64,000 nucleotides of DNA from Aquila chrysaetos chrysaetos (Eukaryota; Chordata; Aves; Accipitriformes; Accipitridae): assembly GCF_900496995.4 (NCBI RefSeq), contig NC_044007.1, positions 72,268,742 through 72,332,741 of the forward strand. Direction: 5' to 3'. The notes under the pieces were generated by a model. It was not told the origin of the DNA. It saw only the letters and a list, made by a program, of their open reading frames with translations, and did not search any database. Made by a program: the position numbers and the translations under genes. Positions 46,306 through 55,079 of the stretch are shown piece after piece (within the stretch, counting starts at the first letter, position 1; every line of letters begins with the position of its first letter).

Positions 46306-46587
46306 ATGCTGCGGTTCCTGCGCAGGACCTTTGGCCGGCGGTCGATGCAGCGCTACGGGCGAGGAGGCGGGCGAGGTGGGCTCGGCGGTGAGGGGGACGA
46401 GCGGGACGGGGGGCTGCGTGGAGCCGCCGCCGTCGCCGCGGGAGGTTTCCCCTCCTCGCCGCACCCCGGAGGGGTCGTGCACGGCGCCGGAGCGGCCGTT
46501 CACATCCCGGCGGCCGGCGGCAGTAAGCCGGTGCTGCAGTGCCGCGTCCTCCTCCTAGACGGGACCGAAGTCAGCGTGGAGCTGCCG
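46306..46587 (+). CDS. EPB41L4B: EPB41L4B first coding exon (partial gene)
   Basis: This exon encodes the first 94 residues of a band 4.1-like FERM protein. I identify EPB41L4B (also called EHM2 or LULU2), a cortical protein linked to the actin cytoskeleton, epithelial junctions and cell motility. The N-terminus MLRFLRRTFGRRSMQRY matches EPB41L4B as I recall it; the paralogue EPB41L5 begins MLSFFRRTLGRRSM. A low-complexity Gly/Arg/Ala linker follows (about residues 18-68), then AAVHIPAAGGSK and LQCRVLLLDGTEVSVELP (residues 77-94), the first strand of the FERM F1 lobe. The start codon has A at -3. The exon ends in phase 0 at GTGAGT, where the family's KHAKGQ-type exon 2 should follow; that exon is beyond the window. 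The frame is also open for 118 codons upstream from an ATG at 45952, but family N-termini favour 46306. Confidence 0.9.
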
Positions 46588-46593
46588 GTGAGT
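46588..46593 (+). other. EPB41L4B: Splice donor of EPB41L4B exon 1
   Basis: GTGAGT directly follows the ELP codons (GAG CTG CCG). It is a full-strength U2-type 5' splice site and ends the coding exon between codons (phase 0), as expected for this gene family. Confidence 0.9.
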
Positions 46594-46839
46594 AACGTGC
46601 GCTTGCCTCCCCTCGCCTGCGGAACAGCGCTTGCCATCTCCCCTCATCTTCCCTCCTCCGCATCGTCCGTGCTGACAGGCTCACCCAGCCCCGGCCGCGC
46701 AACGTGCGCCGTTCTCCGGGCGAGCCCGGCTACTTTCTTCCTCCCCTCCGCCGCCGATCCCCGCCTGCGTGCACCTGCTGCCAGGTGCGCGGCGTCCCTC
46801 CCCGCCATGACCGCCGCTCCGCTCTCCCCGCCGGCTGCG

Positions 46840-50400: not shown

Positions 50401-52226
50401 GCATCTTCACTTACATTGGAGGCTGTTACTCGTTTGGATTTTGTAGCTCGGCTGTAGGTAGACGGAAGGCCACTTGCTCACTGCTGTCAAAACAATCTTG
50501 CCTCTTTTTCTGGAGGACTCATGACTTTAATGAGAGGAAAAACTGGTTATGGATGATGCTGTGTTCTTACATAAAGAATGCAGGGAAAGCGCATTGACAT
50601 TTCCGCAGCAGTGATGATGCCTGCTAGTTAATATATAAACGAAATAGTCTATAGATGGCTCTCGGATGAGGCCAAAAAGCCAAATTTTTGTTGACTTTAA
50701 GACGTGGTTGCTGGCATTTCTAAAATATGAGCCTCTGATTTTTAATTTAGTGCGTTGTATGAAAGCTTAAAGGGAGGATATGAAAGATGGCTATTCAGTG
50801 GGACTGTCCAGGGTAGCAGGAATTAGTGTCCCTTTTCTTAATGCCACTGAAAACAGTATTCTGTGATAAGTTGCAGGAGGGCAGGAGGGGAATGAACACA
50901 TGTAGCGTGTTCTTGGGTTTGTGTAACCTAAGTGGGATAAAAAAGAGGGAACAAATGGTAAGCTTACTCTACTACGGAAATCCTCATCCTGCAAAGCAGA
51001 TATAGGATACCTTACATTTTCTGTGACATGAAGCCACAGCCAGTCAACGCACTCTCTGTCATAAATACTCCTTTCTAAAAATCTCCTTGCTCTGATAAAT
51101 TTCTGTGCTGCTGTGAACGTCATTACAAAGACCTGTGTGATGTACTGGAAAGTAGGTGATGTTTAATGATTGGATTAATGAACAAGTCAAATACAACTCT
51201 TCAGATCTGTGAGTTGTTTTCAGATGGATAGCTTTTGTATTGTTTCTTTGCCTTCCTTTTGGTGTATCTGTTTTAATAATTGTTTCGGCTGCTATGGAAA
51301 CACTTCAGGATAGGGATAGTGAATGTTCTTCAATAGCCTTTTGTAGTCTCTAATCTTCTATGCGTTGTATCCTTTTCTTGCTGGAGTAACATGAGCATAA
51401 CAAAATTTGCTATCTGGCCTCTATGCTTACATCAAATGTAAATGTTAAATTTGCTCTTGAGTAGTCATCTCTATCTTATAATTATTGGTTAGTGTATTTG
51501 ACTTGATAAAGTTATAAATATCGGGAGAGAAGTACAACTCATTTTTTCTTTCTTTTATATCACACGTGATTTCCTAATGACGCTTCAGGAATATTAACTC
51601 TAAAGAAATGGACTAATACGCATGTAGAGACTCCAGAGAATGACTTGAATCTAACTGAGGAGTTACCCCACCCCCCACCCCCCAAATAGATGTATTACAT
51701 CAGATGGGGAACAGGATTTTTTATTAATTGTTTAAAGCTTTTATCACTTACGAAATTGATAATATGCCGCCTTTATGCAGAAGTTACCTTTCAACAACAT
51801 AAAATTAGAGTACTTGCTGGAAAACGTTAAAAGCATATTTGCAGCACTAGGAAGGCCTCTCATGTTCATGAACTCCTGCGGGCACCAGCACCTGTAATCC
51901 CCTTCATAAACTGATCAAGCTCCATTTTTTAGAAGGGCTTGGGTATTTTGCTTCCACAGCTCATCTTGAAATGCCTTTTCATTACCTTACAGCTCGGATC
52001 AAGTAACTGTAGCTAGAACTCGATGTGCTGTCTTCTGGCGGTAGCCTTAAATTATGTTATGCATGTACCGTATACTTGGATGCGTTGCTGTGTATACTGA
52101 AGGTGCGTGAAAAGCGTTCATAGTAGAATCAGGTACTAAAAGCCAGGGACGTACGCAGCCCCCTAGAAATAGGAATGAGGTGGGGTATGCGCATGTGACC
52201 GCAGCTTTGCTTCAGAAATGCACGAC
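47421..52226. other. Intron 1 interior, no exon or repeat family recognised
   Basis: AT-rich intronic DNA. An A-run lies at about 48,921-48,938 and a C-rich simple stretch at about 51,667-51,684. Frames such as 49617-49916 (-) and 50791-51123 (-) have no recognisable domain or splice context. No transposon was identified, although old diverged copies would be missed by eye. Confidence 0.5.
52222..52226. repeat. Target-site duplication, left copy (ACGAC)
   Basis: ACGAC immediately precedes the TGTCGTGG end of the LTR element. The identical 5-mer follows the other end at 55075-55079. Confidence 0.85.
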
Positions 52227-52809
52227 TGTCGTGGTTTAACCCCAGCCAGCAACTAAGCACCACGCAGCCGCTCACTCACTCCCCCCCCCACCCAGTGGGA
52301 TGGGGGAGAAAATCGGGAAAAAGAAGCAAAACCCACGGGTTGAGATAAGAACAGTTTAATAGAACAGAAAAGAAGAAACGAATAATGATAATGATAACAC
52401 TAATAAAATGACAACAGCAATAATGAAAGGATTGGAATGTACAAATGATGCGTAGTGCAATTGCTCACCACCCGCCGACCGGCACCCAGCTAGTCCCCGA
52501 GCGGCGATTCCCCGCCCCCCCCCTTCCCAGTTCCTATACTAGATGGGACGTGCCATGGTATGGAATACCCTGTTGGCCACTTTGGGTCAGCTGCCCTGGC
52601 TGTGTCCTGTGCCAACTTCTTGTGCCCCTCCAGCTTTCTCGCTGGCTGGGCATGAGAAGCCGAAAAATCCTTGACATTAGTCTAAACACTACTTAGCAAC
52701 AACTGAAAACATCAGTGTTATCAACATTCTTCACATACAGAACTCAAAACATAGCACCATACCAGCTACTAGGAAGACAGTTAACTCTATCCCAGCTGAA
52801 ACTAGGACA
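52227..52809 (-). mobile_element. Complete 3' LTR (583 bp)
   Basis: On the minus strand the LTR begins TGTCCTAGTTTCAGCTGGGA and ends GGTTAAACCACGACA. This is the ERV LTR family I recall as common in avian genomes. In order it holds U3, a mutated CRE, a TATA remnant (CTAGTATAGG, where other copies have a better TATA box, from memory), a poly(A)-type ATTAAA (52360-52355), a pyrimidine-rich U5 and a G/C homopolymer. The order CRE, TATA, ATTAAA, U5 fixes the minus orientation. Alignment of its first 272 bp with the partial 5' LTR shows about 8 substitutions and one 1-bp indel by eye, roughly 3%. Confidence 0.85.
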
Positions 52810-53055
52810 CTGGGGAAGGCAGGAGAGCTGATGGGGATGTCCCTTGCCACCCGGGGAAGGCAGCAGCTCGATGGAAGCCAGGCCCTCTCCTCCCCTCTCG
52901 CTCGGGCCTTGGTGCGGAAGAGGTGGCAGCTCTTCACGAGGGGCGGTGGTGGGGATGGGGAAGAAGGGCGCAGGCAACTCTTGAGAGCAAAAGAACTGTT
53001 TAGTGGTGGGAGATGCTGCAGGTGAGCCTGCGGGAAGTCCACGGAGTTTGTTTTC
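52810..53055 (-). other. Unique internal segment next to the 3' LTR
   Basis: GC-rich sequence with no recognised family. Read on the minus strand it is pyrimidine-rich immediately before the LTR, so the purine tract expected for plus-strand priming is absent. The 11-mer TCCCTTGCCAC (52840-52850, + strand) recurs at 54795-54805, beside the broken edge of the 5' LTR. Confidence 0.6.
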
Positions 53056-53205
53056 AGTTAAACAGGACTCTCCCCTTGTGAGCCCGTGTTGGCTATGACC
53101 AATGACTGCATTGTCTCTCAAGTGTTTGTCAGTAACTCCCAGAATGACCTCCATAACTTTACCTGGCACTGAAGTGAGACTGATAGTTTGGAAATGAGAC
53201 ATTCC
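53056..53205 (-). mobile_element. CR1 LINE reverse-transcriptase fragment
   Basis: The minus strand encodes ISLTSVPGKVMEVIL, then SQHGLTRGESCLTE. These are hallmark motifs of the CR1 reverse transcriptase fingers region (typically SLTSVPGKVMEQIL...SQHGFTKGKSCLTN). Only about 45 codons are present, with no flanking CR1 domains, so it is a dead internal fragment. It is sense with respect to the surrounding LTR element. Confidence 0.85.
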
Positions 53206-53440
53206 TAGGGTTCGGTGCCTTTAATTATGACAATTTTACTCCATTTAAAAGACTAGTATCAAGTTTTTGATGTCACAGCCTAAAAAACCCCAGAATGTAA
53301 GGCACCGCCAAAGCGCGCGGGTGGGCATGGAAACGGAAAGTTTCTAGAAAGAGCCTCCTACTCAAAGGCAGAGATCAGGTGGTGTGACAGGAGTGCAGAC
53401 GCAGTTGCCCAAGTGCTAAATAAGAGAGGACGCAAGCTTT
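53206..53440. other. Unassigned internal segment of the composite element
   Basis: No gene or known repeat was seen. In the minus orientation it is the sequence downstream of the cassette's poly(A) signals. It contains only a weak GT-rich stretch that could serve as a downstream cleavage element. Confidence 0.5.
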
Positions 53441-53446
53441 TTTATT
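53441..53446 (-). terminator. AATAAA poly(A) signal, distal copy
   Basis: TTTATT on the + strand gives AATAAA on the minus strand, 173 bp after the stop codon of the cassette frame. Confidence 0.6.
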
Positions 53447-53456
53447 CTCATAGTTG

Positions 53457-53462
53457 TTTATT
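53457..53462 (-). terminator. AATAAA poly(A) signal, proximal copy
   Basis: A second AATAAA on the minus strand, 157 bp after the stop codon. Two canonical signals 16 bp apart after a long frame support a real transcription-unit end. Confidence 0.65.
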
Positions 53463-53618
53463 GTCCAGTCAAGAAGGTGCAGAGGCTGGGCTGCCGGCAG
53501 GGAGCTGGCCGGATGCTCCTGCGACGGTGTTGGCACCATGTGTGGCGAAGGAGCCTGGGTGGTCGGGGTGCAGCCAGGTGATCCCTGTGGCAGGTGCACC
53601 CACTGCCTTCGATGGCTC

Positions 53619-54470
53619 TCATTGAGGTGGATCTACCTCCATGGGCTCCACGTCGTCCTTTGGTGGGCTGTCACGCCTGGGCCTCCCACCGTGCCTCAGC
53701 AGATAGGTACGCCGGGGCCCCACGCTGTTCCCCGACGTGCCAACTGCTGCGCACTGGACGATGATGGTTGCGTGAGCAAGGGCCATCGCTCTCCTGGCTC
53801 GAGGAGGGATGTTGTTCCTCCTTCTTCTCCACCAATTGTCTTTCCTCAGGCTCCTGGGAGGTGCCTTCCTCTTTGACGGTCGCAGGAACCGTCTGCGTGC
53901 TGTCCCACGCCAAGGTGGGCAGCCGCCCGCGTCGCTGCCGCGGCTGCTCCCCGTCAGGCAGACACGCTTGGGCTGCAGGGCGTTTGGTGGTGTGCCTACA
54001 GCCAAGCGCTGCATGGCGTCGGTCAGCGGTTGGAGGCTGACGACGCTGGTGGCGGGAGGGGTGATGGCGTTCCTCCTCCGCCTCCTGCGCTGCCTCTGCT
54101 TCCTCCTGCTGGGACGCGCCTTCCTCCTCCGCGGTGGCGTGGAGGGGCTCTGTGGCGTCCCACGCCGAGGTGGGCAGCCGCCCGCCTCGCTGCCGCCACC
54201 CGTCAGGCAGACTCGCTTGGGCTGCACGGCGTTTGGTGGTGTGCCTACAGCCAAGCGCTGCATGGCGTCGATCAGCGGATCGAGGCCGACGGCGCCGGCG
54301 GCGCGAGGGGCGATGGCGTTCCTCCTCGTGGGAGGTGCCCGACTCCTCCGCGGTGGCGGGGAGAGGCTCTGTGGCGTCCCACGCCGAGGTGGGCAGCCGT
54401 GCGCCTCGCTGCTCCGGCTCCTCTTCCTTCCAAGCATGCTTGGCGTCTGAGGGCCGGGAAGCTCGGCCAT
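53619..54470 (-). CDS. Unrecognised basic tandem-repeat protein in the LTR element
   Basis: A 283-codon intronless frame that I do not recognise. Residues 1-22 include a likely nuclear-localisation stretch, GRKRSRS. Three repeats follow at about residues 23-95, 96-178 and 179-262. Each opens with GCPP(R/W)RGT, continues through an Arg/Pro-rich basic segment to N-x-I-x-P, then an AVGT block and, in repeats 1 and 2, PKRVCLTG. The third repeat is the most diverged. The acidic tail ends KDDVEPMEVDPPQ. Residue composition suggests a nuclear or nucleic-acid-binding protein, which is inference only. The ATG is 33 nt from the TATA box, so the leader would be almost absent; a second ATG at residue 12 (54437, A at -3) is a credible alternative start. 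In the second half of the repeats, several codon differences between repeats 1 and 3 are synonymous in this frame (GCT/GCA, GTA/GTT, ACA/ACG, CGA/CGT), which favours it as the coding frame. Confidence 0.5.
   Translation of the reverse strand: MAELPGPQTPSMLGRKRSRSSEAHGCPPRRGTPQSLSPPPRRSRAPPTRRNAIAPRAAGAVGLDPLIDAMQRLAVGTPPNAVQPKRVCLTGGGSEAGGCPPRRGTPQSPSTPPRRRKARPSRRKQRQRRRRRRNAITPPATSVVSLQPLTDAMQRLAVGTPPNALQPKRVCLTGSSRGSDAGGCPPWRGTARRRFLRPSKRKAPPRSLRKDNWWRRRRNNIPPRARRAMALAHATIIVQCAAVGTSGNSVGPRRTYLLRHGGRPRRDSPPKDDVEPMEVDPPQ
53685..54404 (-). repeat. Three tandem coding repeats (about 219-252 bp each)
   Basis: On the minus strand the units lie at about 54404-54186, 54185-53937 and 53936-53685. 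Units 1 and 2 are nearly identical over their second halves. Unit 2 carries an in-frame insertion in its basic stretch. Unit 3 is clearly older or less constrained. Confidence 0.75.
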
Positions 54471-54496
54471 CTGTGGGCCGGCTGCGGGGCCCCTGC

Positions 54497-54503
54497 TTAT
54501 ATA
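54497..54503 (-). promoter_or_regulatory. TATA box of the cassette
   Basis: TATATAA on the minus strand, in a GC-rich context (GCCC before, GCAGGGGCC after). A start about 30 bp downstream would fall just before the ATG at 54470. Confidence 0.6.
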
Positions 54504-54510
54504 GGGCCGG

Positions 54511-54518
54511 TGACATCA
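54511..54518 (-). promoter_or_regulatory. CRE-like site upstream of the TATA box
   Basis: TGATGTCA on the minus strand, one base from the consensus cAMP-response element and 8 bp upstream of the TATA box. Further TGACG-type half sites lie in the next 50 bp (near 54,540-54,575). ATF/CREB-type binding is inference. Confidence 0.4.
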
Positions 54519-54803
54519 GTAGGCCACTGTGATGGCGACTGTGACGGTGGCTGATGCCTGTGGCCGATTATGACGCGTTCGGGCGCGGTGGGCCTGTGGC
54601 CCCAAAGATGCCCAAATATGGTTGTTGGAGGAGGAGGGCGGTGGGGGCTGAGGGAAGGCAGGGCAGCTCCCACGTGCGGGGCAGCTGCTAGGGTCGGTGT
54701 GCCTCAGGTCGGTGGTGGGGCTGATGCTGGGGATCGTCTGAAGTAATGGCCTGGGTGGTAGCGGGACAAGCCACCTTCCGCAAGGTTGCGGGTATCCCTT
54801 GCC
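54519..54803 (-). promoter_or_regulatory. Promoter-proximal DNA between U3 and the TATA box
   Basis: About 285 bp, GC-rich, with no recognised repeat family, lying between the broken 5' LTR and the cassette's CRE-like/TATA elements. It would be the natural upstream promoter of the captured unit. Repeated GTGATGGC/GTGACGG motifs occur at its TATA-proximal end. Confidence 0.4.
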
Positions 54804-55074
54804 ACTAGATGTGACGTCACATGGTATGGAATACCCTGTTGGCCACTTTGGGTCAGCTGCCCTGGCTGTGTCCTGTGCCAACTTCTTGTGCGCCTCCAGC
54901 TTTCTCGCTGGCTGGGCATGAGAAGCTGAAAAATCCTTGACATTAGTCTAAACACTACTAGCAGCAACTGAAAACATCAGTGTTATCAACATTCTTCACA
55001 TACTGAACTCAAAACATAGCACCGTACCAGCTACTAGGAAGACAGTTAACTCTATCCCAGCTGAAACTAGGACA
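54804..55074 (-). mobile_element. Truncated 5' LTR (U3 only, 271 bp)
   Basis: It matches the first 272 bp of the complete LTR at about 97% by eye, including the TGTCCTAGTTTCAGC end. Homology stops at ACTAG, exactly where the other LTR continues into its TATA-like segment, so TATA, R and U5 are missing. It keeps enhancer-type U3 sequence but could not act as a normal retroviral 5' LTR. Confidence 0.85.
54812..54819. promoter_or_regulatory. Perfect palindromic CRE (TGACGTCA) in the U3 remnant
   Basis: A full consensus TGACGTCA within GTGACGTCAC. The corresponding site in the 3' LTR is mutated (GGACGTGCC). CREB/ATF proteins bind this palindrome; activity here is untested. Confidence 0.7.
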
Positions 55075-55079
55075 ACGAC
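55075..55079. repeat. Target-site duplication, right copy (ACGAC)
   Basis: Immediately follows the LTR end AGGACA and is identical to 52222-52226. It shows the outer LTR ends came from one integration. Confidence 0.85.

What the first reader, a model, noticed from the sequence alone, without database searches (positions are those of the whole stretch)
52227..55074. LTR-flanked composite element that carries a complete-looking transcription unit
A 2.85-kb insertion has a perfect 5-bp duplication at its outer ends. Instead of retroviral genes it contains a TATA box, a 283-codon frame and two poly(A) signals, next to a CR1 fragment. An LTR element carrying an independent gene with its own promoter and terminator is unusual for vertebrates. 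Either a non-autonomous family acquired a cellular or viral gene, or one provirus was rearranged after insertion.
Basis: partly seen in the sequence, partly recalled or inferred. Interest (0 to 1): 0.85.

Follow-up and report, generated by a model that had tools for sequence, protein, structure and literature searches.

The report
Bird array gene caught between LTRs
A copy of a little-known bird gene, normally found in a tandem array, was probably carried to a new place by recombination between two scraps of the same viral repeat, so it looks like a virus carrying a gene but is not a mobile gene-carrying family.

Summary
In detail: 52227-55074 has a full LTR, a 1,994-bp unit with TATA box, 283-codon frame and two AATAAA, a partial LTR and 5-bp flanking repeats (ACGAC). 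The mobile-family reading is not supported. The host genome holds the same unit 1.7 Mb away on the same 77-Mb contig as a head-to-tail array (u1-u4) plus an inverted copy. In the array, LTR is absent at two of three unit boundaries; at the third (u2/u3) sits the same truncated LTR (positions 1-272) with both junctions identical to the window's. Diagnostic sites show a reciprocal switch: the array LTR piece matches the window's full LTR at four sites (71-149) and the window's left piece at four (184-264); a ninth site, 51, does not fit. Best explanation: an array-derived [LTR 1-272 + unit], probably a circle, recombined into a solo LTR already sitting here, mimicking a provirus. No gag/pol match, no polypurine tract. 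The gene has no Pfam match above cut-off; among seven copies its frame shows pN/pS 0.38, against 0.88 and 1.96 in the other frames. A known kind of event, unusually legible.

The parts
52222..52226 (.). 5-bp target repeat ACGAC, left
52227..52809 (-). full LTR (583 bp; starts TGTCC, ends ACGACA on the minus, sense strand). Sites 71-149 carry array-LTR states, sites 184-264 do not; site 51 also differs from the array
52810..54803 (-). one complete monomer of a tandem gene array (1,994 bp), opened at a point inside a ~41-bp spacer repeat
52810..52863 (-). spacer tail with ~41-bp repeat; ends ..CTGCCTTCCCCAG directly at the LTR; identical junction in the array at C4:70625738/70625739
53056..53186 (-). 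131-bp CR1 reverse-transcriptase fragment, part of the array unit
53441..53462 (-). two AATAAA poly(A) signals
53619..54470 (-). 283-codon frame of an Arg/Pro-rich protein with three imperfect modules; only Pfam match is below cut-off (E 0.3)
54497..54503 (-). TATA box TATATAA of the gene
54804..55074 (-). truncated LTR, positions 1-272 with one 1-bp deletion, broken off at the LTR's own TATA-like site; sites 184-264 carry array-LTR states, sites 71-149 do not
54812..54819 (-). TGACGTCA (CRE-like, name recalled) in the truncated LTR, absent from the full LTR
54893..54926 (-). inferred crossover interval in the left LTR piece (LTR positions 150-183); counterpart 52627-52660 in the full LTR
   Evidence: coordinates computed from them
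55075..55079 (.). 5-bp target repeat ACGAC, right

Best explanation
The window element is a pseudo-provirus made by homologous recombination. (1) Shown: an intronless gene sits in a head-to-tail array with a ~41-bp repeat spacer. (2) Inferred: an LTR inserted in the u2/u3 spacer of the array and lost its positions 273-583 plus one spacer repeat, leaving LTR 1-272; the resulting junctions are shown. (3) Inferred: recombination between u2 and u3 released a circle holding one unit (5' part from u3, 3' part from u2) and LTR 1-272, or an equivalent intermediate. (4) Inferred, with a shown mosaic signature: a single crossover between LTR positions 150 and 183 put it into a solo LTR of the same high-copy family, which already sat here between ACGAC repeats. 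The relocated gene keeps its TATA box, open frame and poly(A) signals and now has LTR sequence about 300 bp upstream, so it could be transcribed from its own promoter; expression was not tested. The confidence is for array-to-window transfer through LTR homology, by a circle or an equivalent intermediate.
For: Array u1-43bp-u2-[LTR 1-272]-u3-43bp-u4 at C4:70621853-70629663, with both junctions identical to the window's. Reciprocal switch in the LTR: of 9 sites at which the two window LTR pieces differ, the array piece matches the full LTR at 71, 111, 116, 149 and the left piece at 184, 257, 258, 264 (and at 51). 71T, 149G and 184C each occur in 0 of 8 other LTRs, so the array shares rare states with opposite window pieces. 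The unit is nearest u3 (98.0%), shares six states with u3 alone at 165-224, yet lacks the 14-bp deletion that u1 and u3 share at 1638; u2, rp and d also lack it. No polypurine tract (longest purine run 2 in 24 bases) and no gag/pol match in the five frames put to Pfam. The LTR family is large: 2,461 first-look candidates, 40 scored, 39 of them other places at 97-98%; 4 of 8 fetched copies have perfect 5-bp repeats directly at both LTR ends, as solo LTRs do. An ORF of unnamed source (P0014) runs from unit tail into unit head without an LTR; its tail scores 60 against the unit head, 500 shuffles reach at most 40.
Against: Site 51 does not fit the single switch and needs a private change (T occurs in 2 of 8 other LTRs); at 216 the array differs from both pieces. 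The order of matches alone is not decisive: 9 of 126 arrangements have as few runs. The unit mosaic needs further exchange: 1424-1429 match u1/u3 inside the u2-like part, several sites before 1135 match u2 rather than u3 (127-138, 577, 624, 1001, 1024, 1044), and four states are shared with d alone. The signature is reciprocal, so transfer from window to array is not excluded by it. The circle itself is not observed.
Confidence: 0.8

Rival explanations
1. A non-autonomous LTR retrotransposon family that captured a cellular gene and moves it by reverse transcription.
For: LTR ends with TG..CA termini and a 5-bp repeat at the outer ends; gene in the same sense as the LTR.
Against: No second LTR-unit-LTR copy among the 8 gene places (map; searches scored only 40 of 278 and 40 of 2,461 candidates). 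No polypurine tract, and the left LTR lacks positions 273-583 with any primer-binding side. The unit exists as an array mostly without LTR. The test for ORFs spanning the 54803/54804 junction elsewhere gave 5 matches among 82 candidates; none follows the unit side. P0012's local alignment (45% of the query, 52% identity) runs past the junction, but its letters there go on like P0010, an uninterrupted LTR.
Confidence: 0.04
2. Reverse direction: the composite arose at the window first and a circle excised from it seeded the truncated LTR and a unit into the array.
For: The reciprocal LTR mosaic and the u3-like/u2-like unit mosaic fit this too.
Against: It leaves unexplained how a unit, opened exactly at the spacer, first came to abut LTR position 1 here; in the array an LTR insertion plus a deletion explains it. 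The window unit has its own 6-bp deletion that u1-u4, r and d lack, though that alone does not set the direction.
Confidence: 0.12
3. Replication template switching (MMBIR/FoSTeS type, names recalled and seen in the abstract) copied [LTR 1-272 + unit] from the array into the resident LTR, with no circle. This overlaps the best explanation: same donor, same landing site, other intermediate.
For: Would give the same product if the switches fell inside LTR homology.
Against: The window unit is u3-like at its start and not u3-like at its tail, which a u2/u3 circle gives in one step. Not separable with sequence alone.
Confidence: 0.25

Closest known systems
Segmental duplication through circular DNA intermediates (PMC7450558, PMC7188851; outlines and abstracts seen)
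   Same: A donor segment appears at a distant locus in changed order, as expected if a circle was opened elsewhere.
   Different: The first abstract stresses microhomologies at breakpoints, the second leaves the mechanism open; here the entry point is LTR-LTR homology with a visible switch.
Non-allelic recombination between LTRs / solo-LTR formation (recalled; start of the abstract of PMC11009239 seen in the listing)
   Same: Homologous LTRs recombine; solo LTRs are abundant substrates in birds.
   Different: Usually deletes a provirus interior; here recombination put a host gene between LTR sequences.
Retroviral gene capture (oncogene transduction type, recalled)
   Same: Host gene between LTR sequences with target repeats.
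   Different: No viral genes found, no polypurine tract, gene keeps its own promoter and terminator, and the same truncated LTR stands in the gene's array.
Ampliconic multicopy gene arrays (recalled)
   Same: Near-identical tandem units plus an inverted copy about 47 kb away; signs of exchange among units.
   Different: Function, sex linkage and expression of this family are untested.

Membership tests
LTR retrotransposon / provirus | two complete LTRs flanking the interior | tested here: not met
   left copy has only positions 1-272
LTR retrotransposon / provirus | target-site duplication and TG..CA ends | tested here: met
   ACGAC both sides; same 5-bp type in 4 of 8 fetched relatives and in L027
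LTR retrotransposon / provirus | polypurine tract before the 3' LTR | tested here: not met
   CATCAGCTCTCCTGCCTTCCCCAG, longest purine run 2; on the other orientation 4
LTR retrotransposon / provirus | primer-binding site after the 5' LTR | tested here: not met
   the sense 5' LTR has lost its 3' end and meets array sequence
LTR retrotransposon / provirus | gag/pol frames | tested here: not met
   no Pfam family above cut-off in the 5 frames put to it; only the 131-bp CR1 piece recalls reverse transcriptase. Other frames were not scanned
Non-autonomous gene-carrying LTR family | several dispersed copies with the same junctions and own target repeats | tested here: not met
   1 of 8 gene places; the junction-pattern searches themselves did not complete
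Circle-mediated duplication | changed order relative to donor | tested here: met
   donor u2-LTR-u3, product LTR-unit-LTR with u3-like start and non-u3 tail
Circle-mediated duplication | a circular molecule | not testable with these tools
   needs germline DNA
Functional protein-coding gene family | frame under purifying selection | tested here: met
   pN/pS 0.38 in the frame, 0.88 and 1.96 in the other two; frame open in 6 of 7 near-identical copies. But modules inside the gene show no constraint, and changes to 5 of the 8 relatives (those tested) are at best weakly conservative
Functional protein-coding gene family | transcript and protein | not testable with these tools
   no expression data held

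The most novel reading that the evidence does not exclude
An uncharacterised, fast-evolving array gene, so far named only from birds, spreads along its chromosome by a repeatable route: an LTR fragment lodged in the array spacer turns each released unit into a circle that can enter any of the many matching solo LTRs, a host-made gene shuttle that uses viral repeats as landing sites without reverse transcription.
Probability: 0.2. Interest if true: 0.65.

Novelty: new member of a known kind. Interest (0 to 1): 0.42.

Why it matters
It shows how a host gene can end up looking like the cargo of a retrovirus, with target repeats and all, through LTR-LTR recombination, so LTR-gene-LTR structures should not be read as gene capture without checking for a donor array. 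It also points to an open, probably selected gene family without a known domain, for which the searches named in the report listed no description.

Tried and rejected
Mobile gene-carrying LTR family: rejected. Capture in a provirus: rejected, no polypurine tract or viral match. Phage records, IMG/VR and GTDB genomes: no relative. Rfam: 0 matches in the window at gathering scores. PDB by sequence: one match, a plant photosystem protein at E 0.034, taken as chance. Structure: AlphaFold2 on 9 sequences, mean pLDDT 49.8, pTM 0.17, mostly low confidence, so no fold search. Module-against-module dN/dS and BLOSUM tests gave no clear constraint; comparing genomic copies later did. From I first took sites 71, 111, 116 and 149 as private to the left LTR piece; eight more LTRs reversed that reading. 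The cassette reads GT..AG with a pyrimidine tract on the LTR sense strand; the array spacer has the same CAGGT letters without an LTR, so I treat it as coincidence. A host-gene lead (EPB41L4B) was followed in papers only to one figure legend. Whether C4 is the Z chromosome could not be tested: the DM-domain search did not complete. Genome-wide junction-pattern searches did not complete.
Full report
What is there. The two LTR pieces differ by 8 substitutions and one indel over 272 positions. The sense strand of the LTR is most likely minus: related LTRs in this genome carry TATA-like letters (GTATATAA in L023, GTATATGA in L027, GTATAGGA in most of the eight close relatives) at about positions 270-280, where the partial copy breaks off. 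Read on that strand, the order is LTR 1-272, unit with the gene in the same sense, full LTR.

The unit. On the minus strand it has TATATAA at 54497-54503, the frame 54470-53619 and AATAAA at 53457-53462 and 53441-53446, then a 131-bp CR1 piece and a spacer with a ~41-bp repeat. The protein search gave eight relatives at E up to 1 among the 7,992 candidates scored, five of them below 1e-50; three carry names, all from birds (Grus japonensis, Limosa lapponica baueri, Mycteria americana), the other five have no named source. A Pfam scan of the nine aligned members gave only two matches, at E 0.3 and 0.32, in one member each. Two relatives look degenerate: P0007 runs into CR1-like sequence and P0008 begins in another frame (my reading).

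Not an LTR family. The host genome (1.23 Gb in 144 contigs, window at C4:72268742-72332741) was searched with the unit (40 of 278 candidates scored) and with the protein (39 of 39 candidates scored). The protein search gave 10 matches at 8 gene places, all on C4: the window; four array units; one inverted unit at 70677692-70678546; one broken copy at 72.80 Mb (two matches); one diverged relic at 59.53 Mb (two matches). The full frame is open in six of the eight. Mapping unit and LTR on the fetched stretches shows an array u1 (150-1994), 43 bp, u2 (1-1994), LTR 1-272, u3 (1-1994), 43 bp, u4 (1-1617) at C4:70621853-70629663. The 43 bp are one more spacer repeat plus GT. The inverted place has a partial unit, 43 bp and a unit; the copy at 72.80 Mb has unit tail, GT, unit head without an LTR between. 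A spacer-and-head piece without the gene lies on contig C24.

The same junctions. u2 ends ..CTGCCTTCCCCAG directly at LTR position 1, and LTR position 272 (..CACATCTAGT) meets GGCAAGGGATAC of u3, letter for letter as in the window. So the truncated LTR and the unit were already linked in the array lineage, or the array got them from the window.

The crossover. Of nine sites at which the window's two LTR pieces differ, the array LTR matches the full LTR at 71, 111, 116 and 149 and the left piece at 184, 257, 258 and 264; at 51 it matches the left piece. At 216 the array differs from both. Eight other LTRs, fetched out of the 39 other places, have neither 71T nor 149G nor 184C, and 264A only once. 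This is what one crossover between positions 150 and 183 leaves when a molecule carrying LTR 1-272 plus one unit enters a solo LTR. Site 51 needs a private change; by order alone, 9 of 126 arrangements are as orderly. Four of the eight LTRs have perfect 5-bp repeats directly at both ends, as solo LTRs do, and so has L027, so a solo LTR between ACGAC repeats is an ordinary landing place.

The unit is a mosaic. It is nearest u3 (98.0%; u2 97.2%, d 97.2%), shares six states with u3 alone at 165-224, and lacks the 14-bp deletion at 1638 that u1 and u3 carry. A circle released by recombination between u2 and u3 would have a u3 start, a u2 tail and the LTR piece between them. Against a clean mosaic: ten sites before 1136 match u2 rather than u3 (five of them a u3-only cluster at 127-138), seven sites after 1150 match u3 rather than u2 (three of them at 1424-1429, shared with u1), and four states are shared with d alone. 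I take these as private changes and later exchange among units.

Is the gene real? Among seven near-identical copies (21 pairs) pN/pS is 0.38 in the frame against 0.88 and 1.96 in the other two; mean divergence is 0.021 in the ORF, 0.050 upstream and 0.073 downstream, though the 3' untranslated part is as low as the ORF at 0.016. Against this: ORF length alone is weak (36 of 1000 shuffles), module comparison shows no constraint, and changes to five of the eight relatives are at best weakly conservative (the other three were not tested). I conclude that the array gene is probably selected; whether the window copy is, cannot be told.

Elsewhere. An ORF of unnamed source, P0014, reads from CR1 piece and spacer straight into the unit head (score 60; 500 shuffles at most 40), so the head-to-tail arrangement without an LTR was met outside this assembly too, unless that source is the same species. 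P0020, also unnamed, has spacer next to an antisense relative of the LTR, a different arrangement. The search for ORFs spanning the left junction found five matches among 82 candidates; none follows the unit side.

In print. Searches for gene capture by bird LTRs, satellite or tandem arrays with solo LTRs, ampliconic avian genes, the only functional name met (re1-silencing transcription factor-like) and LTR-LTR recombination listed no paper on this family in the titles and abstract starts shown. That library misses most subscription journals. Circle-mediated duplication was found; it is described for human DNA (abstracts of PMC7450558 and PMC7188851).

Verdict. A real and well-observed composite; most likely a host gene relocated by LTR homology rather than a mobile gene-carrying element.

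Noticed in passing
window 46306-46560 (+): GC-rich stretch encoding MLRFLRRTFGRRSMQRYGRG.., which I recognise from memory as exon 1 of EPB41L4B; the element would then lie in its first intron, antisense. A PDB search of part of it (46399-46599) gave only matches at E 0.32 and above.
   Followed up: partly
C4:70621853-70629663 and C4:70676964-70679464: Two inverted clusters of the gene about 47 kb apart; the homology runs about 300 bp past unit u4 into a shared right flank.
   Followed up: partly
L037 (C4:59533270-59534278): Diverged, broken relic of the same gene family, 72-75% identical in its longer pieces, resembling P0008.
   Followed up: partly
L038 (C24:11159916-11160323): Unit spacer (1749-1994) and head (1-146) lie contiguous on another contig without the gene between; unit breakpoints near 146/150 and 1617/1749 recur at other copies.
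   Followed up: no
P0020 (ena contig of 3,043 bp): In an unnamed source the unit spacer stands next to a related LTR in antisense orientation.
   Followed up: partly
window 54812-54819: TGACGTCA is intact in the truncated LTR and in the array LTR piece, but in none of the eight other LTRs aligned nor in the full LTR; the more distant LTR in L031 has it.
   Followed up: no
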